Of a stretch of 64,000 nucleotides of DNA, positions 14,851-33,715 are shown piece after piece. This DNA comes from Argyresthia goedartella (Eukaryota > Arthropoda > Insecta > Lepidoptera > Argyresthiidae), in NCBI GenBank assembly GCA_949825045.1, contig OX463816.1, positions 18,301,243 through 18,365,242 of the forward strand, in the 5' to 3' direction. Position 1 is the first letter of the stretch; each line of letters starts with the position of its first letter. The notes under the pieces were generated by a model. That model made no database searches and was not told the DNA's origin. It worked only from the letters and a program-made list of their open reading frames with translations. The translations under genes and the position numbers were made by a program.

Positions 14851-14903
14851 CCTATAAGTACTATGCAGAAGCTCGTCCCAGCAGATTTCGATTGTTAGTG
14901 TAC

Positions 14904-17394: not shown

Positions 17395-17400
17395 GACATC

Positions 17401-17615
17401 AGTAGGTAGATAATGACAGTTTAAATTCACTTCACGATCGTTCGGGCCTACGGGCTCGACAGATGGATCGAAAAACCTATCGACAGATGGATCGAAAAAC
17501 CTATTGACAGTTCAAATTCATTTCACGATCGTTCGGGCCTACGGGCTCGACAGATGGATCGAAAACCTATCGACAGATGGATCGAAAAACCTATTGACAG
17601 TTCAAATTCATTTCA
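17401..17615 (+). repeat. Polinton left terminal inverted repeat
   Basis: 215 bp. After the unique 31-bp tip come two tandem units, each starting CACGATCGTTCGGGCCTACG. Each unit includes the doublet GACAGATGGATCGAAAAACC and ends TTCAAATTCATTT. The right copy has three units, so the two ends differ in repeat number. Confidence 0.95.
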
Positions 17616-17837
17616 ATATAATTTCGGAAACTTATAATCACTCATTTGGTCCGTCTTCCGGCTAATACAATGTAGTACTCATTTTACGTACTACACTTGC
17701 ATCCAGACAAGTAATTTTAGTTTTCAATATAATTTCGGAAACCTATAATCACTCATTTGGTCCGTCTTCCGGCTAATACAATGTGGTACTCATTTTACGT
17801 ACTACACTTGCATCCAGACAAGTAATTTTAGATTTTC
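17616..17837 (+). repeat. 111-bp direct duplication next to the left TIR
   Basis: Two copies at a spacing of 111 bp (for example TCCGTCTTCCGGCTAATAC at 17650 and 17761) differ at only a few positions. Each contains one hairpin module of the array described at 17648-19608. Confidence 0.9.
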
Positions 17838-19608
17838 AATATAATATCCTATTTTTAACTTACCATTTTTCTGCTCAGCTACACAAATGACTCTACACTT
17901 TCACTTTGACAATGTAAATATATACTAAATAACAACTGAAAGGAAGCTGAAACATAAGATGTTTGTTTAGTCCGTCTTCCGGCTTATACCAGGTAGTTCT
18001 CCTTTCATGAACTACCCTAGTATCTAAACAACTACACCATTAGTTTTCAGCAACACAGAGACCATCAATGCGTATTAATCCAAGAAATATGTTCGTTTTG
18101 TACTTATCCCAACCAGATCTGCTTTGTCTTTCTTGAAAGCCTGGTTCTTCAGGGAGTTTTGTAATCAAGGTGATCATAATTTAAAGGATTAACAACACAC
18201 GATGTGTCCACTAACTTCACTTCACATAAATAAATTTAAAATCTATTATTTAAAGTAAAATTTGGTGTTACCATCTTCTAAATGTTCCTTAACTGTTGCA
18301 ACTTTTATCGAAATGAGACTATACAAAAACAAAACTTTAATGTTAAAGTGAGTTTGTAACGTTAACTGCACCAACTAGCACGCTGCAAGTATCAAATATA
18401 CTTCGCATGGTAAAGCGAGTCATTGAATCGTATAATATCCATGGTAAGTACAACGTATGTAAGTAAAGTACGTAATGTAACATATCATTAATGATTATAG
18501 CTTTTACACGACACATTTTATGTGATGTTAGACGTAGGTATGATAGGGCTAGCTCATCGCCACAGTTACCAATGCCGGTTTTAATAAATTGTATCTGGTA
18601 ACCCTAGTGTGATTTGCTTTCGTATAACAATGCAATCGATGACGGATGCCGGTCTCACGTTACCCGCTGGCGGTATTGTTTGTCATCACATTTAATTGAT
18701 TTTATTTTACCTCTATTATTTTTTGCATAGTCGCAAGTGTGCAAATTTATACAGGGTGTAAATGAGTATTATGTTGTAAATATAATTGAGTTTATTTTTG
18801 CTAACAGCATAGGTTGTTGTTACTAGGTTAGGTATTTATTCTGAACAAGATTTCTGAAGGTATAACTGATAACGTAAATGAGTTATTTTATTTTTTATTT
18901 TTTTTCTTGTCCTATGAGTTGATTACTTATATCAAACGTAAGGAGTAAAACGTAAGTAATTAACTATTCTTATGATTATTTGTTCATTACACCGCAGTGA
19001 AGTTTTGTAAATATACATACCAGGAAAATATATTTATAGTTAAAATTAAAATGTTATGCATAGATAATGCTAATAAAACTTTCTCATGAATCTAGTTTTT
19101 CACGCCACTGAATAGGTATCGACAAACAATGACTTCATTATTACACCCTGTAAATTACTTGCATGCTCATCATTTATTTCCAATAAAACTGCCAAAATCG
19201 AAAGAAAAATTATCAATTACTTTTGTACCATTGTTGGTAGTAACACCAAGCTACAGACGTTCACGCTAGTGCTCGCGCTCCAGGTCCACCGCGCCCCGTC
19301 TTCATATCCCTGCTGCAAGCTGCGTATCCACTGCGTTACAATCATGTCAGTAAGTTTTTTAAGTTATTTTTATAGACATAGTTCTTGACTAATTGTATGT
19401 TTTTTGTTTTGCATAGATGGTGTACAAAGCTTATAACTATTTGTTTGGATACTAGGGTAGTTCATAAAAGGAGAACTACCTGGTATAAGCCGGAAGACGG
19501 ACCAAATAAGTAGTTATAACTTATTCGAAAAGCTTTATAACCTGTTTGAATGCAAGTGTAGTACGTAAAATGGGTACTACATTGTATTAGCCGGTAGACG
19601 GATCAAAT
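17648..19608. repeat. Mirrored array of five hairpin modules
   Basis: Modules H1 17648-17720, H2 17759-17831 and H3 17969-18033 read on plus; H4 19441-19503 and H5 19546-19608 read on minus. Each has the shared head TCCGTCTTCCGGCT, which can form a short CCG/CGG stem, then ATAC and a second hairpin. In H3/H4 the second stem is GGTAGTTC/GAACTACC with outer ATAC/GTAT; in H1/H5 it is GTAGTAC/GTACTAC. H2 has GTGGTAC, which still pairs through a G-U. H3 mirrors H4, and H1/H2 mirror H5. H4 and H5 fall in the proposed first intron of the spliced gene at 19344. Function unknown. Confidence 0.8.
18034..19343. other. Polinton noncoding region, probable promoter of the plus-strand block
   Basis: No ORF with protein-like composition. 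It is very AT-rich with T-runs (about 18890-18905), then turns GC-richer at 19260-19335 just before the first candidate exon. Position between the hairpin modules and the plus-strand genes suggests a regulatory or origin role (inference). Confidence 0.4.
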
Positions 19609-21145
19609 GGGTTATAATAATCGAATATACCTATACCATGTAATTATTTGATATCTTACTAGTCTTTCCATGTCTTACGTTTTTACATTGTAACTAATTA
19701 ATCTTAGGTACTGCAAGAGTGTTGGTAAGCTATATTCTAGTTTTATTTTCTCATTTACCTACATATGTACTTATTTTTATTTTTAGGTCGGACACTGAGT
19801 ACTACACGAAGAAGGCTGCGACTAATGAGAAGCGGAACTCGTTTGAAACGGACGACGAGGCTGCTTTCTTATGGTAAATATCATTATACCAGCTATACGT
19901 ATATCTTTATTATGCTCTCATAATATTACGTCACCCTGGTACTCACATAGACTATCATATTTTATTGTTAACAGCAACAAAAAGAAAGCCGCTACAAAGT
20001 CAACAAAGCGTGTAGTCGAATCGGACGAGGAATCGGAGATTGTGAGGTAATTAACTTATTATTTTGAACTATAGATTTTGATAAATAACATTTTACAAAA
20101 TTGAAATATGCTACAGTGATGTTTATGTTTTCAGGAACAAAAGGAAGGTTCCCGCTAAGCCGACGGCATCAAAGCGTGTAGCCGAATCGGATGAGGAATC
20201 GGAGATTGTGAGGTAATTAAGTTTTTATTTTCAACGATAGATTTTGATAATTACATTCTACACAATTGCAATATGCTACAGTGATGTTTATGTTTTCAGG
20301 AACAAAAGGAAGGTTCCCGCTAAGCCGACGGCATCAAAGCGTGTAGCTGAATCGGATGAGGAATCGGAGATTGTGAGGTAATTAAGTTTTTATTTTCAAC
20401 GATAGATTTTGATAATTACATTCTACACAATTGCAATATGCTACAGTGATGTTTATGTTTTCAGGAACAAAAGGAAGGTTCCCGCTAAGCAGACATCATC
20501 GAAGCGTGCCGCCGAATCTGACGACGATACAGTACAAAGGTGAATATTTTTTGTGACTTTTAATACATGAATCCTAGTTCGAACCGAGCAGCAAGTATGA
20601 ATAAAATAAGGCTATGTCACGACATATTATGTGTTTAGTTTTAACAGGGATTCTAAAATCTCTCTTTCTATATTTTTCTGTCAATATTTAGGTATCTAGA
20701 CGTCCAGTAAATAACTTTTGTTTTGTTTCACAGACGCAAACCGCAAAAGGACCTGAAGCCTCCAGCCAAACGCAAGGTGCAGCAGAGCGTTGTTACTAAG
20801 AAGCCTGAAGAGAGTTGGCGCGCTTTGGATTCCGAAAGCGAGGACGAGGTGATCTGTAAGAAACCAGAGCTGAGGTCTTCATACTCGAAGCGGGTTGCCG
20901 ACGGCGTCGTGCGGCGAAGTATTAAACTGGAGGGTGACCTCTACTTGGACCTGAAACTCTACCAGGTGGCGGATATCAAAGACGTGGAACCTCGCAAACG
21001 CTACGAGAAGGCGGTGCTGGCATTGAAGTATCAAGCTGACTTCAATTCACCACAACTGGGACTCCTGCGAGAGCTCTTAAAACTCTGCAAGACGTCTTTT
21101 ACTGAAGAGGGATTTTTCTTCGGTGATAAGAAAAACTTAGATTAG
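19344..21145 (+). CDS. Spliced Polinton gene with tandemly duplicated exons, unknown basic/acidic nuclear-type protein
   Basis: Exons: possible first exon ending 19349 (ATG TCA|GTAAGT), 19787-19873, 19975-20046, 20135-20212, 20300-20377, 20465-20539 and 20734-21145 (stop TAG). Every internal junction has GT/AG and the same phase (2), so the frame is unbroken from exon 2 to the stop. Exons 3-6 each encode a ~25-residue unit: basic NKRKVPAK followed by acidic ESDEESE. The last exon carries another basic/acidic linker and a ~90-residue predicted globular part (SYSKRVADGVVRRSIKLEGD ... LKLCKTSFTEEGFFFG). Alternating basic patches suggest nuclear localisation or DNA binding. I do not recognise the family. 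The first exon is uncertain: joining it to 19787 gives a stop, whereas an alternative acceptor ending at 19799 (...CTGAG|TAC) keeps frame. Confidence 0.7.
20047..20541 (+). repeat. 165-bp tandem exon-plus-intron duplication
   Basis: Units with exon starts at 20135, 20300 and 20465 repeat every 165 bp. They include the intron (GTAATTAAGTTTTTATTTTC ... TTTATGTTTTCAG). The first two are almost identical through exon and intron; the third diverges only in the exon's 3' half. Exon 3 (19975) is an older member of the series. Confidence 0.92.
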
Positions 21146-21431
21146 ATTTATTGGTTAATAAAATTTATTTAATAAGTTTACTATGTTTACTTTATAATTT
21201 ATTAGGTAGGCAGGCATCCTTTATTGTAGGCCCCACGAAAGGTAGGTAGGTAGTAAAAATTAGGTGTAACTTAGGTACAGTCTTCACAAAATAAAAGGCT
21301 CGGTGACAGCGTCCGTGTCACTGACGTAATAAGGTTAAATTTAGTTTGGGCTACCGACCCTTTTATATTGTGGAGACTTTAGATAGGTTTTATTTATCAT
21401 TTCTTAGGTTTTGTCCTTACATATAATTAAG

Positions 21432-24400
21432 ATGTCTAATAATAGATTAGTATATTGTACATCCTGTGATGTCTCTGTAAAAAGTAAAAGTTTGTCAGCT
21501 CATTTGCGCAGCACTGTACACAAAAATAATAATGCTGTTATTAAGGGTGAGGGTCTTGAGAAGATATCCAGTGCTTTCCGCAGTCGAATCGCAACGTACA
21601 GACTAAGCAACGTGGACTCGGGGGCGGCGGCGGGCGGCGCGGGCTCTAATGCTTGCCCTCCGAACATCTATCTGCGCTCGCTGCGGTCACGCGTACGTGA
21701 GCTGATAGAGGCGCGGATCGGCTCCTTTAACAGCGTTAAGGTAAATTTTGAACTGTATGCTGAGTTCTCCTTACCTAAGAATGATGAACGGGAGATTAAA
21801 TCGTTCGCCACGCCCAATAAAGTGATTCACAAACATTATGATTTTGAAGATATTTACAAAAACGCTGTAAATTTGATTGTTGCAAAAATCGATGAATTTC
21901 AGGAGAGAGACAGTGGTTGGAGTTTTGTAGCAAATTCGTATCTGGAAGTCAATATCAACAAATATAATCCACTAAGAGGTTCAAGGTTTATCGATCTTCC
22001 TAGACCTATTAAATTAAAACGAGCGTGTGTCAATATTCAGAACTCAGATAATTTCTGTTTTCTATGGTGCATAATGGCCGCTTTATTTCCTGCACAACAA
22101 AATTCACACCGAACGAGTTCATATCCTCATTTCGATACTGTGCTTAACACAAAAAACATGAAGTTTCCAGCAGGTTTCAGGGATGTAAAGATTTTTGAAA
22201 AGAATAACGATAACATAAGTATTAATATTTATGGTCTCAGTGAAAAGTCTGTTGTTGTAGGACCTTTATACAAATCTGTTCACAAGGGGCGGAAGCATCG
22301 TATAAATTTATTGTTTTTGGAATCGGGTGCGCTAACACATTATTGTCTTATTAAGGATTTGAGTAGGCTTGTAAGGTCTCAGATAACTAAACATGATGGT
22401 AGAATATTTTTTTGTGATGATTGCTTGTTATTTTTTTCTAATGATAAAAAGCGTAATGAGCATGTGTGCAGTGGTGTTAAAACGTCATTGCCTGATAAAG
22501 GGACATTGATACAGTTCAAACATTTCGAACGCATGCATGATATGCCATTTGTCATTTACGCAGATTTTGAGTCTATGTTACAACCCTGTTCGGAGAAAAA
22601 CTCGAATTTTACGGAGTCGATTCAAAAACACGTTCCAGTAGCGTTCGGATATTATATTGTTTGCTCCTACGATGCGTCTTTAAATCGATATCAATCATAC
22701 CGAGGTCCGGACTGTATTCAACAGTTTTTAAAAATATTAGGCGAAGACGTTGAAACGATAAGTAAAATACTAAACGATCCTATCGACATGTTACCCCTTA
22801 ATGAAAATGAGCTGAAAAACTTTTTAGAGTCGAAAAATTGTTACCTCTGTAATAAGTTAATGTTTGAAGGAAAGGTTAAAGATCATTGTCATTTGACTGG
22901 ACGCTACCGCGGGGCAGCTCATGATTATTGTAACCTTCGATTTAAGCTCCCTAAATCTTTCGTCCCAATTTTTTTCCACAACCTGTCAGGCTATGACAGT
23001 CATTTGTTTATACGAGAGCTAGGTGAAATGCACGGAAACATAAATGTTATCGCAAGAACAAAAGAAAATTATGTGTCTTTTACAAAGTTCTTTCCTGTTA
23101 ACAATAATGACTATATGGCTGTTCGTTTTGTTGACTCATTCGCATTTTTAGGTACTAGTTTAGAAAAAGTTGCAGAAAATTTAGTAATCGAAGATTTTAT
23201 CCACCTCTCTCGTTGCTACCCCGATAAACAGCAATTCGACTTATTGAGACGTAAAGGTATTTATCCTTACGAGTACATGAATAAATGGAAACGTTATGAT
23301 GAAAATAAATTACCTCCGCGTGAGTGTTTCTACAGCAGTTTAACTGATGAGGTTATTTCAGAGTCAGATTATGCTCACGCACAGTGTGTGTGGCGCTTAT
23401 TCCATTTGTCAAACCTTGGTCAATATACCGATCTATACTTAAAATCAGATGTAATGCTGTTGACGGATATTTTTGAGAGTTTTAGAAAGACGTGTAAAAC
23501 TAATTATAGGTTAGACCCAGCCTTTTACATAACGGCTCCCAGCTTAAGCTTCGATGCAATGCTGTTAAAAACAGAAGTAAAATTAGAATTAATAGATGAT
23601 CTGGAAATTATCAGAATGATACAAAAAGGTATTCGTGGAGGTGTTTGTTTATGTTCTACTCGCTATGCCAGTGCTAATAATAAGTACCTCTCGAACTACA
23701 ACCCCTCGAATCCTGATAATTACTTATTGTATATAGATTGTAATAATTTGTACGGATTTGCTATGTGTAGTTATTTACCACACTCTGATTTCGAATTGAT
23801 CGAAAATCCTGTGTTTCAAGTTTCTGACATTCTCTGTTTACAAGACAATTCAGATGTAGGTTACATTTTTGATCTCGATCTAGAATATCCTGAATCTCTA
23901 CATGATCATCATAACGATTTACCTTTCTGCCCACAAAAATTTGTACCGCCTGGATCTAAAACGAGTAAACTGATACCGAATTTGTATGACAAATATAATT
24001 ATGTTATGCACTATATTCATTTGAAAACGTGTCTGAAACATGGACTTAAATTAAAAAGCATACACAGAGTTATTAAATTTAAACAAGGTCCATATTTGAA
24101 ACAATATATTGATTTAAATACGGAATTGAGGCAAAAAGCTAAATCTCAATTTGAACAAGACTTTTTTAAATTATTAAACAATAGCATTTTTGGTAAAACC
24201 CTTGAGGATACGGAAAAAAGGTTAAATGTTAAATTAGTAAATCAGTGGTCTGATAAACATAACAAAACGAAAAAACATTTAGGCGCAGAGCAACTAATAG
24301 CTCGACCTAATAACCATAGCTCAACTATTTTTACTGAAAATTTTGTAGCGGTCCAGATGAATTCTGAAAAAATTACTCTCGATAAACCAATTTACATTGG

Positions 24401-24971
24401 TTTTTCTGTTTTGGAAATATCTAAGAGTCATATGTACGACTTTCACTATTCTGTTATGAAACCTTTTTATGGCCCTAATATAAAAATGTGTTACACAGAT
24501 ACTGACAGTTTTCTGTATTCCATAACAACGAAAGATGTCTACAAAGACATAAAATACCATTTCCCTCAATACTTCGACACTAGCAACTACGCGTGTAATA
24601 ATATGTATGGTATAAGGAGGCATAATAAAAAAGTGCCTGGGTTATTTAAAGATGAGCTAGGAGGTCAGCTTATAGTCGAATTTGTAGGCCTACGGTCTAA
24701 ACTTTATTCCATAAAAACTGAAGATACTGAATTAAAAAAAGCTAAAGGAACCAAAAAATCTGTTGTGAAAACATTGAGTTTTAAGGACTATAAAGGTGTT
24801 TTATTAGATAATAATTTAGTTAGGAAAAAAAATATGGTATTCAGGTCATTAAAACATGAAATTTTTACACAGTCGCTTAATAAAATAGCTCTCTCAAGTA
24901 ATGATGATAAGCGCATCATTCTAAAAAATAAAATATCAACTCTTTCATGGGGTCATGAATCAGCATTTTGA
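21432..24971 (+). CDS. polB: Protein-primed DNA polymerase B (Polinton pPolB)
   Basis: 1179 aa from the ATG at 21432 (the frame is open slightly upstream, where a TTCTTAG splice-acceptor-like site suggests a spliced leader). N-terminus: C2H2-like finger CTSCDVSVKSKSLSAHLRST. Exonuclease: Exo I IYADFES (D378/E380), Exo II NLSGYDSHLF (D522), Exo III YLKSDVMLL (D673). Between Exo I and II is a Cys/His cluster (C470xxC...DHCHLTGRYRGAAHDYC) resembling an endonuclease VII-type treble clef. Polymerase: motif A YIDCNNLYG (D769), motif B NNSIFGKT (about 917), motif C YTDTDS (D1023/D1025). All catalytic residues are present. It would replicate the element with proofreading, probably primed by a terminal protein, as known for the family. 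Upstream is the spliced gene; downstream lies a SINE. Confidence 0.97.
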   Translation: MSNNRLVYCTSCDVSVKSKSLSAHLRSTVHKNNNAVIKGEGLEKISSAFRSRIATYRLSNVDSGAAAGGAGSNACPPNIYLRSLRSRVRELIEARIGSFNSVKVNFELYAEFSLPKNDEREIKSFATPNKVIHKHYDFEDIYKNAVNLIVAKIDEFQERDSGWSFVANSYLEVNINKYNPLRGSRFIDLPRPIKLKRACVNIQNSDNFCFLWCIMAALFPAQQNSHRTSSYPHFDTVLNTKNMKFPAGFRDVKIFEKNNDNISINIYGLSEKSVVVGPLYKSVHKGRKHRINLLFLESGALTHYCLIKDLSRLVRSQITKHDGRIFFCDDCLLFFSNDKKRNEHVCSGVKTSLPDKGTLIQFKHFERMHDMPFVIYADFESMLQPCSEKNSNFTESIQKHVPVAFGYYIVCSYDASLNRYQSYRGPDCIQQFLKILGEDVETISKILNDPIDMLPLNENELKNFLESKNCYLCNKLMFEGKVKDHCHLTGRYRGAAHDYCNLRFKLPKSFVPIFFHNLSGYDSHLFIRELGEMHGNINVIARTKENYVSFTKFFPVNNNDYMAVRFVDSFAFLGTSLEKVAENLVIEDFIHLSRCYPDKQQFDLLRRKGIYPYEYMNKWKRYDENKLPPRECFYSSLTDEVISESDYAHAQCVWRLFHLSNLGQYTDLYLKSDVMLLTDIFESFRKTCKTNYRLDPAFYITAPSLSFDAMLLKTEVKLELIDDLEIIRMIQKGIRGGVCLCSTRYASANNKYLSNYNPSNPDNYLLYIDCNNLYGFAMCSYLPHSDFELIENPVFQVSDILCLQDNSDVGYIFDLDLEYPESLHDHHNDLPFCPQKFVPPGSKTSKLIPNLYDKYNYVMHYIHLKTCLKHGLKLKSIHRVIKFKQGPYLKQYIDLNTELRQKAKSQFEQDFFKLLNNSIFGKTLEDTEKRLNVKLVNQWSDKHNKTKKHLGAEQLIARPNNHSSTIFTENFVAVQMNSEKITLDKPIYIGFSVLEISKSHMYDFHYSVMKPFYGPNIKMCYTDTDSFLYSITTKDVYKDIKYHFPQYFDTSNYACNNMYGIRRHNKKVPGLFKDELGGQLIVEFVGLRSKLYSIKTEDTELKKAKGTKKSVVKTLSFKDYKGVLLDNNLVRKKNMVFRSLKHEIFTQSLNKIALSSNDDKRIILKNKISTLSWGHESAF

Positions 24972-24986
24972 GCTGTATATGTATGA

Positions 24987-25245: not shown

Positions 25246-25259
25246 TCATATAACTTGTC

Positions 25260-25400
25260 TCTAAACTATAGCTTGTAAGTGAATATTGTTTTAAAAATAA
25301 AATATCGTGCTTAGTGAATATTGTTTTAAAAATAAAATATGAATCAACATAGACTCTAAACTATAGCTTTTAAGTGAATATTGTTATATTAAAATAAAAA
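25260..25400 (+). repeat. AT-rich tandem repeats after the polymerase gene
   Basis: GTGAATATTGTTTTAAAAAT appears twice and a diverged form once, with CTAAACTATAGCTT heads at two of them. AATAAA-like signals inside may serve as polyadenylation sites for pPolB. Confidence 0.6.
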
Positions 25401-25873
25401 ATGTGTTCTCGGATTATGTTTCGTGTTTCTTTTTAAGCTTAATGTTACAACATACCCTACTTAATGTCAGATATCAGCCGGAGTGGACTTGTATGTAGAG
25501 GTTAGGTACTTTAGAATGGTTTTCTAAAAGATGGAACATATCGCTTGAAAGCGATAACGTTGAAATGATTATGATGACTAATCGCAACGTGAATATTGCA
25601 CGTGTTGCGTTCAATGAACTCAATTTGAAAAATATAACAATATGTGCATATTAACGTAAGCAAAATTTTATTAAGAAATGCAAGATTAGGTGATTTGTTT
25701 TATTACAACGTGATAATGACCATTTCTAAAGAAGGTAGCTTAAGAAGAGGACGCGGTTCATTACTCCAAGATTATGTCTATATTAAACGAGGTAAAACAT
25801 ACTGTTTATTTTTGGATGATTATTATAAAGTTTATTTTCGCAGTAAACTACATCATGTTTTTTGTTTTACAGT

Positions 25874-26232
25874 CAATGGATCCCTCTGACTTGTGGTTCC
25901 AACACGCTCAGCCTCAAAATTATGACGACGTTCTGCAAGATTCTACACCCAGTCAAGACACCAAAGAAAAGAAAAAGAAGAAAAAGATGAGATTGGACAG
26001 AAATAAATTAAATCCGACAGTGTTGTCATCATACGTAATAACAAAGGCCCCGAAAAGACCTCTTCGTTTGATTAAGATAGAAATTTACGACTTAAATGGA
26101 CCTCAGACTTGTACAGATGATAGTGTTGTAAGCGTACAGTACGTACAATCGGAAGTAGTAGATGAAATAATGGACTTGTCAGAGAATTTAGTGAATAAAA
26201 TTTGTAAAAAAATATGCAATGATTCTATTTAA
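25874..26232 (+). CDS. Small Lys-rich Polinton protein, unknown
   Basis: 118 aa starting MDPSDLWFQHAQPQ. The ATG lies 3 bases after a strong acceptor (TTTTGTTTTACAG, ends 25870) and a good donor (AAC|GTAAGC) lies at 25656, so the leader is probably spliced. Residues about 33-45 are a run of Lys/Arg (KEKKKKKKMR), a likely nuclear signal. The rest has TKAPKRPLRLIKIEIYDLN and a helical C-terminus (VVDEIMDLSENLVNKICKK). No family recognised. It is last in the plus-strand block, convergent with the capsid block. The open stretch 25644-25870 in another frame lacks an ATG start and is probably intron. Confidence 0.6.
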
Positions 26233-26414
26233 ATAAATAAAATTCACTATTAATTTATTTTGATGTTTTATTTATGTACTTTAAGTCTTTAACCCTTGTG
26301 TAGTTTAAAGGGATGCTGAAATAAAATCAATAATTTAGGTAAACAAACATTTATTATTAATCATTTTTTAAACTAATCGATAACACATACACTCATAAAA
26401 CAAAAGTAAAATAA
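26233..26414. terminator. Convergent polyadenylation spacer
   Basis: AATAAAATT at about 26234-26242 serves the plus block. A/T-rich sequence with reverse-strand AATAAT/AATAAA-like motifs around 26340-26365 would serve the minus block. This is where the two Polinton transcription blocks meet. Confidence 0.5.
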
Positions 26415-26903
26415 TTACATAGTTATTTGTTTATCTTTAAACCATTTTTTAATACATAATACGTTTCTTAGAGCACAATTGGATTTGTGAGTTATACAAC
26501 TGAAATCATTGAGATGTGATTTAAACATCTCAAACAACTGTTTTAAATTTGGACATCCTTTTTCTTCTATGTTTATTATTGCACAGTTCTCACACAATTC
26601 TTTCAACCATTTTACCTTTTCTAAACCTTTAACTATTAAAAGTTTGTTCTCTAGATATGGTTTGATAATACTTTTGAACTGCAGAAAATCAACGTGTCCC
26701 TCACCCCATCTGTACCCGAGATTGTTTTCAATCCATTGTACACGTTTCTTTTCCACTTCTGATAAATATCGATAAGGATACGGAGGCTTGATGAGAAATA
26801 CTTGAGTGTATTCGGCTGTAGCCAACGCAAGTTCTTTAACAATGAAATCATTCTCAGCATTTTTAAAACCTTGTACGTCTACAAATAAAGTTTTTGTATT
26901 CAT
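26415..26903 (-). CDS. Polinton protein with RNase H-like/DEDD exonuclease-like features
   Basis: 162 aa. The start MNTKTLFVDVQGFKNAENDF resembles an ExoI-type D-x-(E/Q)-G strand and is followed by FIVKELALATAEY. Middle: KLLIVKGLEKVKWLKELCEN; end: a Cys/His-containing NCALRNVLCIKKWF. I recall similar stand-alone proteins in insect Polintons, but the nuclease assignment is inference from fold-like pattern. Its ATG overlaps the capsid stop as ATGA (26900-26903), suggesting coupled expression. It is last in the minus block. Confidence 0.55.
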   Translation of the reverse strand: MNTKTLFVDVQGFKNAENDFIVKELALATAEYTQVFLIKPPYPYRYLSEVEKKRVQWIENNLGYRWGEGHVDFLQFKSIIKPYLENKLLIVKGLEKVKWLKELCENCAIINIEEKGCPNLKQLFEMFKSHLNDFSCITHKSNCALRNVLCIKKWFKDKQITM

Positions 26904-28117
26904 GATAATTTTCTTACAATATTACTTAATGGTTTATATTCAATTAAACATTCATTCAGAATAAGACAATACGCCGACGTTTGATCAGGTATTTCTACTT
27001 CACTCTCGAGCTCTAGGCGTACATTAACCACCGGTCCAGATTTCAGATTATCGCTTTGTCTTGAACAGTCTATAACAAAAAGAGGAGCCAACTCTTTGAA
27101 CTCTTTTGCACTCAACAATGGCTCAGTTCTTCTGCCGTAATAAGACTGCTGAAATCTAACGTATTGCTCGTATAATATAGCAATATTGTCGTTAGTAAAA
27201 CTTACGTTCATATTGTCGTACGGAAAGTAGGTTGAGTTTAGATATACTTTTACATCACGCAAATTACAATGATCGAATTGTGACATGTCTTTGTGAGCGT
27301 CGTTTTTGCGATTGGTCTGCAACCCTAGTATAACATATCGTGGTTTTTCAATCTGGGAAGATGTTTTGATTGACCATGTATGCTTTGTAGTTCTTGGCAG
27401 CAAGGGATATTCATACAAATCCCAATTTCTAAATGGTACTTGGATAGATCTATCCTTTTCCAACAATCGTAGAAGATTGATTCTTTCCGCGTCACTCACT
27501 TTTACATGTGGAACTCGCCATATAATTTTATGAATTTTTACGTCTTCTACGACTTCACCGGTATTTAATTTTAGAGCATTCAGGTTTGTGTTACTGCGAA
27601 GAAGAACAAGTTCATGTTTGCAGTTGATTATAACTTTCTTATAATCTTCTGCAAATCCTAGGATGTTACACAGAGGTATCGACGCTGAAAATTTTCCTGA
27701 TTGCACGTTTTTCGTGCCATTGATATCCCAACCCCACGCTTTAGACATCTTTGACTCACTATCATTCATAGACAACAGTGACTTCATTGTAGTAGTAATT
27801 CCAGCGTTTTTAACCTTATCTACTTCAACTCCATTCAATTCATAACGAATATCTTGAAAAAAGTATAACAGCGGATTATTTGTAAACTGCACACTAGCAA
27901 CCGTTTCCTTTGCAGCGTTCTTCGAAACATTGACGACACCTTCCAAATATAACGTGCTTGCCGATGGGAGTATGTACAGATCTTGTTGATTAATCGGTAT
28001 ACGAATTTCATCATTACGATTGAATGTAGTGACATAAGGTTTATACGAATGAATCTCAATACCATCAATGCTATTATCATAGACAGGCGCACTCAAAATA
28101 TCTAGAATGTTACTCAT
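26900..28117 (-). CDS. MCP: Major capsid protein (double jelly-roll type)
   Basis: 405 aa, MSNILDILSAPVYDNSIDGI to LSNIVRKLS. Position between penton and downstream genes, size, and a beta-rich body with few helices fit the Polinton double jelly-roll major capsid protein. Supporting patches: IRIPINQQDLYILPSASTLY near the N-terminus, NPLLYFFQDIRYELNGVEVD, GFAEDYKKVIINCKHELVLL, and YLNSTYFPYDN. It would form hexon-like trimers of an icosahedral capsid. The start codon overlaps the stop of the 47-aa ORF (ATGA at 28117-28114). No stop or frameshift. Confidence 0.85.
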   Translation of the reverse strand: MSNILDILSAPVYDNSIDGIEIHSYKPYVTTFNRNDEIRIPINQQDLYILPSASTLYLEGVVNVSKNAAKETVASVQFTNNPLLYFFQDIRYELNGVEVDKVKNAGITTTMKSLLSMNDSESKMSKAWGWDINGTKNVQSGKFSASIPLCNILGFAEDYKKVIINCKHELVLLRSNTNLNALKLNTGEVVEDVKIHKIIWRVPHVKVSDAERINLLRLLEKDRSIQVPFRNWDLYEYPLLPRTTKHTWSIKTSSQIEKPRYVILGLQTNRKNDAHKDMSQFDHCNLRDVKVYLNSTYFPYDNMNVSFTNDNIAILYEQYVRFQQSYYGRRTEPLLSAKEFKELAPLFVIDCSRQSDNLKSGPVVNVRLELESEVEIPDQTSAYCLILNECLIEYKPLSNIVRKLS

Positions 28118-28257
28118 GATAAAAGTCCAATTTGTTTAAGGAATTTTATATTTTTTGCAGTTAGTTTCTTCTTCTTCCAAGTCCTTTCCTTGTGAGAGAT
28201 TGAAGTGTGACTAATCGTTTTTGGTAGTCGTGATAAGTTTTTATTAAAATCAATCAT
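28114..28257 (-). CDS. 47-aa basic protein between penton and capsid genes
   Basis: ATG at 28257 overlaps the penton stop (ATGA 28257-28254), and its own TGA (28116-28114) overlaps the capsid ATG (ATGA 28117-28114). The product begins MIDFNKNLSRLPKTISH, has RTWKKKKLTAKNIKFLKQ, and is strongly basic, which would suit a nucleic-acid-binding or capsid-associated role (inference). It is too short for standard gene calling. The exact fit between two ATGA overlaps argues that it is real. Confidence 0.7.
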   Translation of the reverse strand: MIDFNKNLSRLPKTISHTSISHKERTWKKKKLTAKNIKFLKQIGLLS

Positions 28258-28955
28258 TTTTTCTTAAGGTGTAAATACAGTTGAACTTCTTCACCACGTA
28301 AATTAATTAAATTATTCTTAATGTCCAATATCCTTACAGTTATGGTGCTTATGTTATTTTGGTTTACGGGAAAATAAATAACGTTCTTTGGTATTTCTAT
28401 TAACCTATAACCTGGTGGAACGTTAGGAGCAAACTCATGTATAATGTGACTTGATATGCCATTTATATATGATCCACTCACTATATCACATTCTATTCTC
28501 ACCACAGTTGTTGAAAGCATATTAACAGGATATTGTGATTCGTGTAATATATTAGCTTCAAGCGGTTGATTACCAAATCCTAACAAATTTCCTAGACTAT
28601 TTTCTTTCTCAAAATGAATAGCTTTGTTGCTGATAATGTACGTTTTCAATGTATTATTGTTGCATGATAAATTAAAGTTGATGTCTTGCAATTTTCCTTT
28701 CAGGTAGTCGTTTATATCTTGCAATTCGTATGTTCCTTCAGGAATTTCAATAACATCATTTTCACCGTAATAAAACTTGTTATTTGTACTATCAACGTTT
28801 GGAATTGAATTAAAGGTAGATAGGTATAGCAGAGCGCACTCATATTCTCCCTCTAGTTGTAATGTAGGAGAATAATTCGTAATTAAAAGCGACGTATTGC
28901 CTGTTATTGATAGGGTGAATGACATTTTAACAATGGTGAAAATAAACGCTAACAT
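28254..28955 (-). CDS. Minor capsid (penton) protein
   Basis: 233 aa from the ATG at 28955, which overlaps the protease stop (TGATG). An internal ATG at 28925 (MSFTLSITGNTSLL, 223 aa) is an equally good start and closer to family N-termini. Features: LEGEYECALLYLSTFNSIPN, YYGENDVIEIPEGTYELQDI and the C-terminal PPGYRLIEIPKNVIYFPVNQ, a pattern found in Polinton penton-like single jelly-roll proteins. It would occupy capsid vertices. Confidence 0.82.
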   Translation of the reverse strand: MLAFIFTIVKMSFTLSITGNTSLLITNYSPTLQLEGEYECALLYLSTFNSIPNVDSTNNKFYYGENDVIEIPEGTYELQDINDYLKGKLQDINFNLSCNNNTLKTYIISNKAIHFEKENSLGNLLGFGNQPLEANILHESQYPVNMLSTTVVRIECDIVSGSYINGISSHIIHEFAPNVPPGYRLIEIPKNVIYFPVNQNNISTITVRILDIKNNLINLRGEEVQLYLHLKKK

Positions 28956-29334
28956 CAATACTTTATATGTTTATTCCAAAAATCTTGCAAGTACTTTAAA
29001 CATAAATGTCCACAGTTCACACTTTCATAAGTCTGATATCGAGTATAATTGTAATACAAATTAGGAGTATTGAGATATTTCACAACTTCTACCGGCGGCT
29101 TCAAGTTTCCAAAGCTGTCAAAATATTCATAATAGTCTTTCAGTTTTATGTAGGCTACCCAGTGTGTTCCGGCATTGTGCGAATCGTCTAAATTTATAAT
29201 ACCACATTCTATACTTCTTGGTTTTCGTGGTAAAGCATCTTTCATGTAAACTCCACGAAAATATGGTATTTCTCTAGCATATTCGATGATATCTAAATTG
29301 GTCAGAGCACGCTTAGGCAGCCTGTTTATTAGTT
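28955..29334 (-). CDS. Adenain-like cysteine protease (possibly expressed by -1 frameshift)
   Basis: The catalytic region from the first ATG (29245, 96 aa) has His in GTHWVAYIKL, Asp in YEYFDSFGNL and Cys in NCGHLCLKYL, the His-Asp/Glu-Cys order of adenovirus-type proteases that mature capsids. Conserved sequence continues upstream of that ATG (LTNLDIIEYAREIPYFRGVY), yet the frame has no Met back to the in-frame TAA near 29342. The open frame starts exactly at a slippery site overlapping the end of the PLA2 ORF (29332-29338). Options: -1 frameshift fusion, non-AUG initiation, or use of the internal ATG with loss of the N-terminal strand. Confidence 0.85.
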
Positions 29335-30060
29335 TTTTGATTTAATAAACAAGCCACTACCTTTTTTGTAAGGTTTGATGTATAAGCCTCGACCCACTGA
29401 AATTGATTCCATCTTTTGATTGTGACGTTTTGATTCTCGCAAACTTTCTTGAGCAGCTTTATAATCATTAACACTTTTTGCTATTCCAGCTGCCCCTCCA
29501 GCAAGACTTCCTAAAGCAGACAACCCAGCAAAGATAGGTATTAAAGGAAGAAATCCTCCACTTTTAGGGAGAGGAATAATTCGTGGTATCCTTATGTTGT
29601 GTTTGGTATCTACATCAATTAACTTTTTGGCGACCGCATAAGCAACTTTAATAGCACTATTACTATTTTTTGGTTTTAATTTCTGAAGATGACCTTTTAT
29701 TTTAGATACCATATCTTTAAAACGTCGTACCCCAGACCCGGTTTTAAGTTTTGTCTTCATGACTTTATTAACCAACCAAGAAGCTATCTTTTCACCACGC
29801 TTAGCGTCTTTTGATCGTAGTCTCTGTTTTGTCATATTCAGTAAATCCAAATCAGCTTTATGTCGGTTTTCTAAATCAGAGAATTTCGTATACGCTATGT
29901 CGTGATGCATACATGCGTTGTCCAATAGATTGATGCCCTTATCTCCACGTGCTAGACGCTTCACCAGCTTTGTTCCAGGACCACAATAATTATAGCCAGG
30001 TAGATGTAGCTCGATCGGTAAATTATTGATAAAACTGTTAATAAGACCTCCGCCATGCAT
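29329..30060 (-). CDS. PLA2-domain virion-type protein
   Basis: 243 aa. Residues about 17-70 form a parvovirus VP1-type phospholipase A2 domain: LPGYNYCGPGTKL (calcium loop), GDKGINLLDNACMHHDIAY (catalytic His-Asp) and KADLDLL. After a basic linker (KTKLKTGSGVRRFKDMVSK) comes a Gly/Ala-rich hydrophobic segment (LIPIFAGLSALGSLAGGAAG), possibly membrane-active, and a short C-terminus ending in SKN. In parvoviruses such a domain breaches endosomes; that role here is inference. Catalytic residues are present. The stop coincides with the slippery site for the protease. Confidence 0.85.
   Translation of the reverse strand: MHGGGLINSFINNLPIELHLPGYNYCGPGTKLVKRLARGDKGINLLDNACMHHDIAYTKFSDLENRHKADLDLLNMTKQRLRSKDAKRGEKIASWLVNKVMKTKLKTGSGVRRFKDMVSKIKGHLQKLKPKNSNSAIKVAYAVAKKLIDVDTKHNIRIPRIIPLPKSGGFLPLIPIFAGLSALGSLAGGAAGIAKSVNDYKAAQESLRESKRHNQKMESISVGRGLYIKPYKKGSGLFIKSKN
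29332..29338 (-). promoter_or_regulatory. Candidate -1 ribosomal frameshift heptamer A_AAA_AAC
   Basis: On minus, the PLA2 frame reads TCA AAA AAC TAA; bases 29338-29332 are the classic slippery A AAA AAC in the right register. A -1 slip reads AAA AAA CTA and continues open to the protease stop, 29 codons before the first protease ATG. A weak stem (AGGC/GCCT) follows; no strong pseudoknot was seen by eye. Confidence 0.55.
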
Positions 30061-30086
30061 TACTGATAATAGACTAAGGTTATAGT

Positions 30087-31016
30087 TTATACCATTGCCT
30101 TTTTATCGATCCAACTATTTTGAGTTTCATCTAAACCTAACCATTTTACAAACAACTTATTCCCTTTTTTTCTTATGACTTTTTCAATTAAATATACATC
30201 AGGATATTTGGTCTTCTGGAGTTCTTGATCATAAAAACTTCCTAAAATCGGTTGACGACGACTATCTTCAATCAAATAAGTAACAGGAATCGTGTTGTTT
30301 ACCTTCTTGATAAGAAATATTTCTGTCGACCAATTAGGCGTATAGCCTTTTTTAAAACAGCTTTTGTATTTACTTATTCTTACGTTATCGCCAACACAAA
30401 ATTTAGGTTTCTTAACGTGATTAGTTTTACTCTGGAACTTTTTGATATTGTCTAATACTTTGCTTGCATTTAACTTTGTTACTTTTGCAGGCTCCTCTTG
30501 CGTAACACGATGTTTTGTATGATTGTAAGAATGAACTACACTTTCTAATGGTTTACCTAGCCACTTGTAACTACCTTTAAAAGAAAAATTCTTATAGAGA
30601 TGTGCTTTTAATGTTCTGATTAATCTTTCCACTATGGATGCTTTTTTAACTGAATATGTAGAATAGTGATTTATTTTGTAGGTTTTCATTAGTCTTTTGA
30701 ATTCATCGTTGTAGAATTCAGTTCCCATATCTGTTTGTAGATTATTTGGTTGTCTTCTACTTTTCTGCAAGATGCTTTCGAAGACTTGACACATTTCTTG
30801 TTTAGATTTAGTTTTAAGAGGTACAGCCCACGCATATTTTGAGAAGCAATCAATAACGACAAGAATAAACTTATAACCTTTATTATAAATTTTCAATGAA
30901 ATAACATCTATCAAATCTGCCTGCCACAAATCATCAATTCCTTTGAGAAGCACTGATCGACGAGAAAAATTTTTTCTTGCATTTTTATGTATTTCGTTTA
31001 CCACCTGCTGCTTCAT
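30087..31016 (-). CDS. int: Retroviral-type integrase with chromodomain
   Basis: 309 aa. Catalytic core: WQADLIDV (first Asp), LQTDMGTEFYN (second Asp), KASIVERLIRTLK (Glu). After an SH3-like region (VGDNVRISKYKSCFKKGYTP) the C-terminus is a chromodomain: VYLIEKVIRKKGNKLFVKWL, then WIDKKAMV. The integrase would insert element DNA and generate the 6-bp duplication seen at the ends. The ORF starts abruptly at KQQVVNEIHKNARKNF with an in-frame stop just upstream, so the N-terminal zinc-binding domain present in many relatives appears absent or reduced. Overlaps the upstream fibre-like ORF by 32 bp. Confidence 0.93.
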   Translation of the reverse strand: MKQQVVNEIHKNARKNFSRRSVLLKGIDDLWQADLIDVISLKIYNKGYKFILVVIDCFSKYAWAVPLKTKSKQEMCQVFESILQKSRRQPNNLQTDMGTEFYNDEFKRLMKTYKINHYSTYSVKKASIVERLIRTLKAHLYKNFSFKGSYKWLGKPLESVVHSYNHTKHRVTQEEPAKVTKLNASKVLDNIKKFQSKTNHVKKPKFCVGDNVRISKYKSCFKKGYTPNWSTEIFLIKKVNNTIPVTYLIEDSRRQPILGSFYDQELQKTKYPDVYLIEKVIRKKGNKLFVKWLGLDETQNSWIDKKAMV

Positions 31017-31341
31017 CTTTGTTCAACGATTTAATGATATTATCTAATTCACTCCTCGTATAAACATCCTTTATAAAGTTATTCAGCACTCCTTGTATAT
31101 CTTTAATTGCTTCGTTCAGTAGAAATTGACAATCTTCCCGTAAATCTTTACTCTTCATATCAACGTACTCCTTGTTTACGGCGTCGTCTGACTCTTGTGG
31201 TGCCTTTAAACCTTTTAATCGTGACGACTGAAGATCAAAAAGTCCTTCTTCGTTTTTGGTCAACGCATTGTCAGTAAAATCAAACAATTCAGATAAACGT
31301 AAACGTTTATGAACATGGTGACCGAATTTATCAATATTCAT
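30985..31341 (-). CDS. Polinton fibre-like/coiled-coil protein
   Basis: 118 aa, MNIDKFGHHVHKRLRLSELF at the N-terminus. Then FDLQSSRLKGLKAPQESDDA and VNKEYVD, the 'L-x-N/G-L-x-x-P-x-x-x-x-D-A-V-x-K-x-Y-V-D' signature common in phage tail-fibre/virion-attachment stalks, followed by a helical, probably coiled-coil segment (LLNEAIKDIQGVLNNF). A trimeric stalk or virion-anchoring role is inferred. The C-terminus overlaps the integrase start. Confidence 0.6.
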   Translation of the reverse strand: MNIDKFGHHVHKRLRLSELFDFTDNALTKNEEGLFDLQSSRLKGLKAPQESDDAVNKEYVDMKSKDLREDCQFLLNEAIKDIQGVLNNFIKDVYTRSELDNIIKSLNKDEAAGGKRNT

Positions 31342-31422
31342 AGTACTGAGGTAGATTACCCTAGTTATTTGTAGAGAGTTGAAGATGAAGTGCTCAAAAT
31401 AATTTAAGTATGATTATTTATT

Positions 31423-32397
31423 CTAACCAAGCAAACCACTTTCTTTGAGTTCTTCTATGATGGATATTATTTCATTATCAAGTCCAGTGTTTCCAGCGTC
31501 ACGAGATGCTATAAGTAGTTTTAACCTATCCACTAGCTCATTTGGATCATCCCAGTAGACATAGTCTATATTTTTCTTCCATTTTTTTAGTACAGGTAAA
31601 CCTGAACCTTGAACCTGATTGCTTTCACTATTGTCATGTTTATTAAATAGCGGTTTAATAATGTTTAAGTATTTTATTCCTTTGTTGCTTTTTACTGGTT
31701 TATTTGAGTCGTAATCTCGCCTATGTGCATTTGTCTCCAACAGCATTAACTTGTAATTTGCCAAGTCTTCCTTTGTTATATCTGCCAAGTCCGGTAATTT
31801 TTTGGTTAGCAATTCCATCAAGCCTCGAGTCTTATTGTAATCAGATGTTCCTATTGTAATGGTTTTATCGGTGATATTTACATTCGCTGAGCCCATCAAA
31901 AGTTTTCCTCTTTCGACTCTTACTCCAAAAGGAGTATTCTTTAAATACTCCGATGTAAGCGACCATGATGAACAATTTTGGTTCTGAGTGTTTGCATCAG
32001 ACTCAATCGAATTTTGAGATATATCAGATTCTTGTCCTTCATTAAAGTCGTTGTCAGAATCTTCGCCTTCCATTTCCGCTGCACGATCTAAGCTATGAGT
32101 AGGTGTCATAAATTGATCAGAACGTCTTATATTTCGTAAAGTGTCATCGGCTGCACTCCGGTCAATGGAATCGTCGATTTCATTTTCAAATTTCGTCTCT
32201 CCATTTTTGATAGGACATGTTGTTTCTTTGCTCTCTGTTTGCCTCATAGCATCAGTAATTTTATTAAGGGGGCTAAGAACTGGTTTGAACACGTTTCCTA
32301 TAGCTCTTTCATATTCTGATTCAACGTTACGCATTTTTTTAAACTTTTTCTTTACTGCTTCGGCAGCAGTTACGATTTCCTTTAAGTTATTTTCCAT
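31423..32397 (-). CDS. DUF8207-like conserved Polinton protein
   Basis: 324 aa from the ATG at 32397 (MENNLKEIVTAAEAV); the frame is open back to the ATPase stop but only with a GTG. The N-terminal third is helical and charged, and the middle is acidic/Ser-rich (EGEDSDNDFNEGQESDISQN). The C-terminal ~170 residues match a domain repeatedly seen in insect Polintons: TPFGVRVERGKLLMGSANVN, TRGLMELLTKKLPD, then YVYWDDPNELVDRLKLLIAS and NEIISIIEELKESGLLG. Function unknown. It follows the ATPase with a short gap in the same block. Confidence 0.8.
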   Translation of the reverse strand: MENNLKEIVTAAEAVKKKFKKMRNVESEYERAIGNVFKPVLSPLNKITDAMRQTESKETTCPIKNGETKFENEIDDSIDRSAADDTLRNIRRSDQFMTPTHSLDRAAEMEGEDSDNDFNEGQESDISQNSIESDANTQNQNCSSWSLTSEYLKNTPFGVRVERGKLLMGSANVNITDKTITIGTSDYNKTRGLMELLTKKLPDLADITKEDLANYKLMLLETNAHRRDYDSNKPVKSNKGIKYLNIIKPLFNKHDNSESNQVQGSGLPVLKKWKKNIDYVYWDDPNELVDRLKLLIASRDAGNTGLDNEIISIIEELKESGLLG

Positions 32398-32481
32398 ATC
32401 TAAATAATATCTTGTATGCTCGTCCTCTTCTAAGCTAAGTGCTAAGCTATCGAATAAAACAGCATTTATATATACTTTCAC

Positions 32482-33168
32482 TCAGGTAAAAACGACGAAC
32501 GTGTCAAACTGTTTACGATAGCACCCTTTATTTTTTTCACAATCTTTGTTTATGACCAAGTAGCTATAAGAATCGTTCCATATTTTTGAACACATTTCTC
32601 GAAATTCGTTCCATGTCATATCCGTGTTAACATGTTCATCATATATATGTCGTAAATTAATGTCATCTTGTTTAAAAAGTACAAGTAGGTTTGCATTGTC
32701 TCTAACAAGTTGTTTGGGTATTTTAGTATAAGTCTGGTTTAAATAAAAACAATCAATATTTTTGTGTCTGCCCATTGCGAAATAATCACGCATGTTGTTT
32801 TGATTTTCACATGAGACATCATCAAATATAATTACTGAGTTTGATTGCGCTTCCTCCGTGCTGAGTACTTGCTGATTAGCATGGAATTTAAAGAACGATA
32901 TACTCGGAACTAAACTTAAGACCTTCTCAAGAAATTCGTATTTTGGTTGATGTAAGGTTTTTGAATAAACGTAAATATTCTGGAAGTGGAGCCCGTTTTC
33001 ATGTAATAGAAGACCGACCATCAGATTCGTTTTCCCGCAGTTTGACGGCCCGCATATCAGACATCGTATGGAATTTGGTAACAGGTTACCATGGCGAAGT
33101 ATTTTAGTTGAATCAGAAGTACATAATTTATCTAAGTGTAATGTACTTTTTTGTTTTAAAAATTTCAT
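32482..33168 (-). CDS. A32/FtsK-like genome-packaging ATPase
   Basis: 228 aa from the first ATG (33168). Walker A CGPSNCGKTNL (about residues 39-49), Walker B SVIIFDD (about 111-117), a sensor-like YLNQTYTK and RDNANLLVLFKQDD with a likely arginine finger. Poxvirus A32-type ATPases pump DNA into the capsid; this is the Polinton counterpart. First gene of the minus block, starting about 130 bp inside the right TIR, so its promoter must lie in or beside the TIR. Confidence 0.95.
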   Translation of the reverse strand: MKFLKQKSTLHLDKLCTSDSTKILRHGNLLPNSIRCLICGPSNCGKTNLMVGLLLHENGLHFQNIYVYSKTLHQPKYEFLEKVLSLVPSISFFKFHANQQVLSTEEAQSNSVIIFDDVSCENQNNMRDYFAMGRHKNIDCFYLNQTYTKIPKQLVRDNANLLVLFKQDDINLRHIYDEHVNTDMTWNEFREMCSKIWNDSYSYLVINKDCEKNKGCYRKQFDTFVVFT

Positions 33169-33300
33169 ATTGAAATCGGTATGATTCACTTGGAAATCTG
33201 CATAAGACTACAAATATTTCGAATATTAATAACATTATATTGTGTAGCAGCCTGGTTCTGGATCAAGAATCATCCGACCCCGAACTTAGGCTCTACGTCG

Positions 33301-33582
33301 TGAAATGAATTTGAACTGTCAATAGGTTTTTCGATCCATCTGTCGATAGGTTTTCGATCCATCTGTCGAGCCCGTAGGCCCGAACGATCGTGAAATGAAT
33401 TTGAACTGTCAATAGGTTTTTCGATCCATCTGTCGATAGGTTTTTCGATCCATCTGTCGAGCCCGTAGGCCCGAACGATCGTGAAATGAATTTGAACTGT
33501 CAATAGGTTTTTCGATCCATCTGTCGAGCCCGTAGGCCCGAACGATCGTGAAGTGAATTTAAACTGTCATTATCTACCTACT
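33301..33582 (-). repeat. Polinton right terminal inverted repeat
   Basis: 282 bp, the reverse complement of the left TIR but with three tandem units rather than two; the outermost unit is a shorter variant carrying only one GACAGATGGATCG block. The 6-bp target duplication follows at 33583-33588. A reading frame of repeated DRWIEKPID is a by-product of the repeats. Confidence 0.95.
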
Positions 33583-33715
33583 GACATCCTACATTTTAAG
33601 AGTATAATATCAAAAATCAACCAACAAAATAAAAAATTGCCGAATTTAAACGTGTTCAATAGGAGTGATTGTCTGTACCCAAAGATATATCAAAAGCCCG
33701 ACAGCAAATACTTAC

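What the first reader, a model, noticed from the sequence alone, without database searches (positions are those of the whole stretch)
17395..33588. Intact, precisely bounded Polinton inside an intron of a ligand-gated chloride channel gene
Both ends, a perfect 6-bp target duplication and every recognised gene are intact, which is uncommon for a 16-kb Polinton in an insect genome. It lies 128 bp from the Cys-loop exon. The empty site can be predicted exactly (one GACATC). The capsid block runs on the same strand as the host gene, so host transcription passes through it in sense.
Basis: partly seen in the sequence, partly recalled or inferred. Interest (0 to 1): 0.9.

Follow-up and report, generated by a model that had tools for sequence, protein, structure and literature searches.

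The report
Young Polinton inside a channel-gene intron
A nearly complete, probably recently inserted virus-like transposon (a Polinton, also called Maverick) sits in an intron of an insect nerve-channel gene; it is a well-kept member of a known kind, with one virion gene lacking a normal start codon.

Summary
A 16,182-bp element (17401-33582) is flanked by a perfect 6-bp duplication, GACATC. Its terminal inverted repeats show 0 mismatches in 215 aligned bases and differ only in length (215 vs 285 bp). It carries the Polinton/adintovirus gene set: packaging ATPase, chromodomain integrase, phospholipase protein, adenain-like protease, probable penton, double-jelly-roll capsid protein and, on the other strand, one 1,179-codon PolB frame. 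Architecture and most gene lengths match the Sf Mavericks of a moth cell line (PMC5803895), so this is a new member of a known kind.

The host intron is confirmed: donor 33716|33715 and acceptor 15057|15056 rejoin a TGG codon after the Cys-loop. The insertion enlarged a ~2.47-kb intron to 18.66 kb.

Correction: 'every recognised gene is intact' is too strong. The protease frame is open but has no ATG until its 33rd codon. It overlaps the phospholipase gene at an in-phase A AAA AAC heptamer, so a -1 frameshift fusion is possible, but no stimulatory RNA structure supports it. Also found: a predicted spliced accessory gene with repeated symmetric exons, and five covarying hairpin units in the left arm. 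No second copy, empty allele or host genome could be searched.

The parts
17395..17400 (.). target-site duplication, left copy (GACATC)
   Evidence: read directly
33583..33588 (.). target-site duplication, right copy (GACATC)
   Evidence: read directly
17401..17615 (+). left terminal inverted repeat, 215 bp, built of 91-bp and 24-bp subrepeats
33298..33582 (-). right terminal inverted repeat, 285 bp; 0 mismatches to the left one over 215 aligned bases, 67-bp internal length difference
17632..18037 (-). three ~84-nt hairpin units (17632-17715, 17744-17826, 17954-18037), forms A A B
19435..19620 (+). two inverted hairpin units (19435-19519, 19537-19620), forms B' A'
19787..21145 (+). predicted spliced accessory gene: exons 19787-19873, 19975-20046, 20135-20212, 20300-20377, 20465-20539, 20734-21145; four internal exons of 72, 78, 78, 75 nt in one phase; first exon not found
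   Evidence: sequence, frames; exon ends set at the GT, one or two bases beyond the ends typed; exons 2-5 overlap a 165-bp tandem array
21432..24971 (+). [quoted passage not shown]
   Evidence: 35-37% identity over 1086-1236 aligned positions to three environmental relatives
25774..26232 (+). open frame of 152 aa, unknown, may not be a gene
   Evidence: no Pfam match
26415..26903 (-). 162-aa protein, unknown; by place and size the counterpart of ORF8 (158 aa) of the Sf Mavericks
   Evidence: lengths from PMC5803895
26900..28117 (-). major capsid protein, double jelly-roll, 405 aa
   Evidence: PF21738 E 3.6e-110
28254..28925 (-). probable penton (minor capsid protein), 223 aa
   Evidence: inferred from position next to the capsid gene (rule); no useful PDB or Pfam match; model too poor
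28955..29341 (-). adenain-like cysteine protease frame, 128 codons, no ATG before codon 33
   Evidence: weak matches to ASFV S273R protease E 0.018 and adenain E 0.03
29332..29338 (-). A AAA AAC heptamer in the phospholipase frame, directly before its stop, within the protease frame's 13-base overlap
29329..30060 (-). phospholipase A2-domain virion protein (CAP of Sf Maverick), 243 aa
   Evidence: PF08398 E 5.6e-15
30087..31016 (-). integrase with C-terminal chromodomain, 309 aa, D-D-E residues present (read by eye)
   Evidence: PF00665 E 8.3e-13, PF00385 E 4e-4; retroviral integrases down to E 1.2e-5
30985..31341 (-). 118-aa open frame overlapping the integrase start, unknown
31423..32397 (-). 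324-aa protein, by place the counterpart of ORF2 of the Sf Mavericks
32482..33168 (-). genome-packaging ATPase (A32 type), 228 aa
   Evidence: PF04665 E 1.3e-5
33716..34115 (-). host Cys-loop receptor exon, end with donor AGCT|GTAAGT (upstream boundary not fixed)
   Evidence: PF02931 E 3.3e-26
14788..15056 (-). next host exon, acceptor CAG|GG at 15057|15056 (downstream boundary not fixed)

Best explanation
This is a recently integrated, nearly complete Polinton of the insect (Sf-Maverick-like) lineage. Linear element DNA, copied by its own protein-primed PolB, was joined by its integrase into a ~2.47-kb intron of a Cys-loop receptor gene, which duplicated six bases. Splicing from 33716 to 15056 should remove the element with the intron, so host coding sequence is preserved. 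Shown here: ends, duplication, gene frames, host splice frame. Inferred from known Polinton biology: the replication and integration mechanism, and tolerance by splicing. Not shown: present activity. The protease can only be made in full by a non-AUG start or a frameshift, or is already lost.
For: Perfect GACATC duplication and 215/215 identical aligned TIR bases; capsid, integrase, chromodomain, phospholipase and ATPase matches; PolB open for 1,179 codons and alignable to three environmental relatives over 1086-1236 positions; layout as Sf Maverick 2, and lengths near those of the Sf Mavericks: ATP 228/228, INT 309/310, capsid 405/404, ORF8 162/158, PolB 1179/1162 (here/Table 2). Host exons on one strand in channel order, with donor and acceptor rejoining TGG in ...NLESW.
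Against: Protease frame without an early ATG and only weakly recognised. TIRs of unequal length. Lengths that agree less well: ORF2 324/305, CAP 243/258, penton 223 against ORF6 148; the 118-aa frame has no listed counterpart. PolB reaches no Pfam or PDB polymerase at E<=1, so it rests on motifs read by eye and on relatives. Penton named from position only. No second copy or empty allele seen: the genome search did not complete (14 tries).
Confidence: 0.93

Rival explanations
1. On the protease only: it is made by -1 ribosomal frameshifting as a phospholipase-protease fusion, as retroviruses make Gag-Pro. Ribosomes slip at A AAA AAC just before the phospholipase stop and enter the protease frame.
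For: The heptamer is in the right phase, directly before the stop, in the 13-base overlap of the two frames. It is the only AAAAAAC on the minus strand between 26415 and 33168 and 1 of 12 in-phase X XXY YYZ heptamers in 2149 codons of nine frames. The protease frame has no ATG there. PMC11071296 (section 16 read) reports possible -1 shifts in adintovirus pentons and possible hexon-adenain fusions.
Against: The region downstream folds no better than shuffles (z -0.59 and -0.01). At 12 in 2149, some X XXY YYZ heptamer in the last three codons before a stop is expected in about 2% of genes, and it was noticed after the fact. No close relative with this junction could be read.
Confidence: 0.18
2. 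On the protease only: its start has been lost by mutation and the copy is defective for virion maturation, or it starts at a near-cognate codon such as the CTG at codon 8.
For: The Sf Maverick protease is listed at 133 aa, against 96 aa from the first ATG here. The other eight frames of the block, as delimited, begin with ATG.
Against: The frame is open for 128 codons to its stop, with H, D and C residues that look like the catalytic triad (assignment recalled).
Confidence: 0.75
3. The element is an old, fixed or domesticated insertion kept for host use.
For: Its place 127 bases from a splice donor could affect splicing (inference).
Against: 0 substitutions in 215 aligned TIR bases, exact duplication, open 1,179-codon PolB.
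Confidence: 0.04
4. Assembly artefact or chimera.
For: None found; reads not available.
Against: Exact duplication and TIR termini at both junctions, and a host splice frame running across the element.
Confidence: 0.02

Closest known systems
Sf Maverick 2 (and 1), Spodoptera frugiperda Sf-RVN cells, GenBank KY042018/KY042019 (PMC5803895; section 11 part 1 of 2, sections 12, 15, 16 and search passages seen)
   Same: Eight small genes in a row and PolB on the other strand (Sf Maverick 2); chromodomain integrase of 310 aa, phospholipase CAP as fourth small gene, protease, 404-aa ORF7 (equated with the capsid gene here by place and length), ORF8
   Different: TIRs, target duplication and insertion site: 'terminal inverted repeat' and 'intron' occur 0 times in its main text. 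Protease listed at 133 aa. Their sequences are not held here, so identity could not be measured
Adintoviruses (definition in PMC11071296, section 16 read)
   Same: Integrase with C-terminal chromodomain, adenovirus-like virion genes; PolB N-terminal region looks OTU-like by eye
   Different: Found here as an integrated copy; Alpha/Beta class not assigned; OTU domain not confirmed by a search
Cotesia congregata bracovirus circle 31 Maverick (PMC5803895 section 11; PMC5704228 passage)
   Same: Insect Maverick described as similar to the Sf Mavericks
   Different: That copy is partial and rearranged
L005 (IMGVR_UViG_3300028392_002905), L006 (IMGVR_UViG_3300007522_001028), L007 (GTDB contig CAISOX010000020.1)
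   Same: PolB alignable over 1086-1236 positions at 35-37%; L006 has a phospholipase gene (PF08398 E 1.1e-14), L005 an integrase and ATPase match
   Different: Capsid protein not matched at E<=1 in any of the three; far relatives only

Membership tests
Polinton/Maverick | long terminal inverted repeats and 6-bp target duplication (rule recalled) | tested here: met
[quoted passage not shown]
   (motifs by eye and relatives; no Pfam polymerase match)
Polinton/Maverick | retrovirus-like DDE integrase | tested here: met
Polinton/Maverick | packaging ATPase | tested here: met
   PF04665 25.3 bits, cut-off 22.8
Polinton/Maverick | adenain/Ulp1-like cysteine protease, expressible | tested here: inconclusive
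   open frame with weak PDB matches (2 of 11 listed are viral proteases, E 0.018 and 0.03; the other 9 are integrins); no Pfam or PHROGs support; no early ATG
[quoted passage not shown]
   PF21738 E 3.6e-110
Polinton/Maverick | single jelly-roll penton | tested here: inconclusive
   position only; uninformative
Adintovirus | PolB with OTU-like N-terminal domain | tested here: inconclusive
   C and H residues at about 216-311 of P0010 read by eye; no domain match
Adintovirus | integrase with C-terminal chromodomain | tested here: met
   PF00385 E 4e-4, 20.7 bits, below the curated cut-off of 25.1
Adintovirus | capsid and PolB recognisable by BLASTp against the reference adintoviruses | not testable with these tools
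   reference sequences not held
Cys-loop receptor (host gene) | Cys-loop in the ligand-binding domain, then membrane segments | tested here: met
   M1 and M2-M3 exons found, M4 not sought
Cys-loop chloride channel (host gene) | anion selectivity | not testable with these tools
   best solved structures are glycine and GABA receptors (60 best of 187 shown)

The most novel reading that the evidence does not exclude
This Polinton makes its maturation protease only as a -1 frameshift fusion to its phospholipase protein, a Gag-Pro-like strategy in a double-stranded DNA virus lineage; and, in addition, the five covarying hairpin units of its left arm are a structured nucleic-acid family of the element, unmatched in Rfam 15.
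Probability: 0.1. Interest if true: 0.6.

Novelty: new member of a known kind. Interest (0 to 1): 0.36.

Why it matters
Young, nearly complete Polintons with both ends and an exact empty-site prediction allow a test of whether these elements still move in insects and whether a host gene tolerates a 16-kb virus-like insertion beside a splice donor. The protease junction offers a concrete, cheap test of unusual translation in Polintons. The element itself belongs to a lineage already described from moths.

Tried and rejected
Single-protein scans of viral contigs with capsid, integrase and PolB and tblastn of the capsid in phages found no relative. The integrase-motif scan gave L001 and L002, the PolB-motif scan L003 and L004; of these four, searched with ten element proteins at E<=0.01, only L004 matched. 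L004 is the same contig as L005.

I first suspected a broken integrase because a 118-aa frame overlaps its start. [quoted passage not shown] Frameshift-stimulating structure: not found. Structure predictions of penton and ORF8 from single sequences were too poor to use (mean pLDDT 31.4 and 43.0), so no fold search was run. Rfam gave no match at E<=1 for 17390-20800, and the hairpin motif has no exact match in IMG/VR. The bacterial promoter scan of the right end is not meaningful for an insect element. Weak matches that I treat as chance: penton-L006 E 0.32, ATPase-L007 E 0.27, protease-L007 E 0.81.
Full report
What was checked. The finding places an intact Polinton at 17395-33588 in an intron of a ligand-gated chloride channel gene. 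The termini were read directly. GACATC stands on both sides; inside it the element begins AGTAGGTAGATAATGACAG and ends with the reverse complement. The element is 17401-33582, 16,182 bp. The left TIR is 215 bp and the right 285 bp; over the 215 aligned bases there are no mismatches, and the difference is a 67-bp gap plus three bases at the inner edge. Both TIRs are built of 91-bp and 24-bp subrepeats, and the right one also shows a 67-bp period, so copy-number slippage explains the length difference (inference). Zero substitutions fit a recent insertion, but TIRs can also be homogenised by replication, so no date is given.

Gene content. On the minus strand, from the right end: ATPase (228 aa; PF04665 E 1.3e-5), a 324-aa protein, a 118-aa frame, integrase with chromodomain (309 aa; PF00665 E 8.3e-13; PF00385 E 4e-4, below its curated cut-off), phospholipase protein (243 aa; PF08398 E 5.6e-15), protease frame, probable penton (223 aa), major capsid protein (405 aa; PF21738 E 3.6e-110) and a 162-aa protein. 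On the plus strand lies PolB, 1,179 codons from its ATG. PolB reaches no Pfam polymerase model and no PDB chain at E<=1; its best Pfam match is Endonuclease_7 (E 1.5e-4, below cut-off), as also listed for the Sf Mavericks. It is assigned from its motifs (D-x-NNLYG, YTDTDS, exonuclease residues; motif names recalled) and from three relatives found by scans: L005, L006 and L007, at 35-37% identity over 1150, 1236 and 1086 aligned positions, E 0, 0 and 5e-174. Of the nine minus-strand frames compared with those three loci, the phospholipase protein matched L006 (E 4.6e-9) and the integrase and ATPase matched L005 (4.5e-9, 3.5e-7); the capsid matched none at E<=1, and three further matches at E 0.27-0.81 are taken as chance.

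Known relatives. PMC5803895 (section 11 part 1 of 2, sections 12, 15, 16 and passages) describes two apparently intact Maverick lineages from a Spodoptera frugiperda cell line. Sf Maverick 2 has eight small tandem genes and PolB on the opposite strand, as here. Lengths in its Table 2 (which does not say which of the two elements they come from), with those here in brackets: ATP 228 (228), ORF2 305 (324), INT 310 (309), CAP 258 (243), PRO 133 (128 open codons), ORF6 148 (223), ORF7 404 (capsid, 405), ORF8 158 (162), POLB 1162 (1179). The pairing of ORF6-8 with penton, capsid and the 162-aa protein is mine, from order and length; the 118-aa frame has no listed counterpart. Chromodomain integrase and phospholipase CAP are shared. 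A preprint (PMC11071296, section 16) lists an OTU-like PolB N-terminus and a chromodomain integrase among adintovirus traits. The element is therefore a new member of a known kind, most likely in a lepidopteran. The host is not identified; the moth assignment rests on this lineage, on a repeat type recalled as typical of moths (36104-37533), and on a mir-2780 match that lies in a repeat (second copy at 61390-61519).

Host gene. The exon ending at 33716 carries the Cys-loop (PF02931 E 3.3e-26). Its donor is AGCT|GTAAGT. On the same strand the next exon begins at 15056 after CAG; T plus GG gives TGG and the sequence ...MNLES-W-KYNASQL... (read by eye). The first membrane segment is at 13736-13629, and the second and third at 4517-4356. 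The intron is 18,659 bp; without the element and one duplication copy (16,188 bp) it would be 2,471 bp. The element lies 127 bases from the donor and its capsid block is in sense with the host gene. Chloride selectivity is inferred: the best of 187 solved structures matched are glycine and GABA receptors (60 shown).

The protease. Its open frame runs from 29341 to 28955 and has no ATG before codon 33, which lies inside the stretch that aligns with adenain (query residues 26-65, E 0.03; ASFV S273R protease E 0.018; the other 9 of 11 listed chains are integrins at E 0.47-0.85). Pfam and PHROGs do not recognise it. The other eight frames of the block, as I delimited them, begin with ATG. The protease frame overlaps the phospholipase frame by 13 bases, and these contain A AAA AAC in the phase needed for a -1 shift, directly before the phospholipase stop. 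It is the only AAAAAAC on the minus strand of the block (50 in the whole window on both strands against 38.5 expected) and 1 of 12 in-phase X XXY YYZ heptamers among 2149 codons of nine frames. Against this, the downstream RNA folds like shuffled sequence (z -0.59 for 100 nt, -0.01 for 55 nt), and the heptamer was noticed after the fact. The same preprint reports possible hexon-adenain frameshift fusions in adintoviruses, so the idea is not unheard of. A search for 'Polinton' with 'ribosomal frameshift' listed two papers; I read passages and one section of one of them and only the listing of the other. I judge a lost or non-AUG start more likely (0.75) than programmed frameshifting (0.18).

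The left arm. First, six exon-like stretches with consistent splice signals and phase (19787-21145); with ends set at the GT, one or two bases beyond those typed, the four internal ones are 72, 78, 78 and 75 nt, and a 165-bp exon-plus-intron unit is repeated in tandem. They would encode about 265 residues of basic-acidic repeats (NKRKVPAKPTASKRVAESDEESEIV) and a C-terminal region without a convincing Pfam match (zf-SAP30, E 0.021); the first exon was not found. Second, five copies of an 84-nt imperfect palindrome in the order A A B ... B' A' (17632-18037 and 19435-19620). On one strand 7 of 25 predicted pairs have changes on both sides (shuffles 2.7 +- 1.2, 0 of 500 reach it; slid versions at most 1), while the number of further pair types (10) is no higher than in shuffles (10.1; 364 of 500 reach it). 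On the other strand it is 8 of 30 pairs (no shuffle control run). Single copies fold better than shuffles: z -1.9 to -3.6 for the five units on one strand, -4.5 and -6.4 for the two units tested on the other. Five related copies in one element are a small sample, and the structure was derived from them. The symmetric arrangement suggests either a nested non-autonomous element or binding or structural sites of the Polinton; a second Polinton copy would decide.

Verdict. Observation confirmed, interpretation partly supported. The element is a young, nearly complete member of a known lineage, interesting mainly as a test case.

Noticed in passing
window 17632-19620: Five covarying ~84-nt three-way hairpin units arranged A A B ... 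B' A' around 1.4 kb without long frames; no Rfam match at E<=1. Nested inverted-repeat element or structured nucleic acid of the Polinton.
   Followed up: partly
window 19787-21145: Predicted spliced gene with four symmetric exons (72, 78, 78, 75 nt), overlapping a 165-bp exon-plus-intron tandem array that encodes basic-acidic repeats.
   Followed up: partly
window 44601-44730 and 61390-61519: The Rfam mir-2780 match at 44620-44707 lies in a sequence with a second copy 95% identical in the same window, so this 'microRNA' looks repeat-derived.
   Followed up: partly
window 36104-37533: Three tandem copies of a 478-bp unit at 96%, containing a GGGTTCCGTACCC...ACGGGACCC motif recalled as a common moth repeat.
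   Followed up: no
L007 (CAISOX010000020.1): A contig titled as part of an 'uncultured Alphaproteobacteria' genome encodes a Polinton-type PolB over 1086 aligned positions: probably a eukaryotic virus contig misbinned in a bacterial MAG.
   Followed up: no
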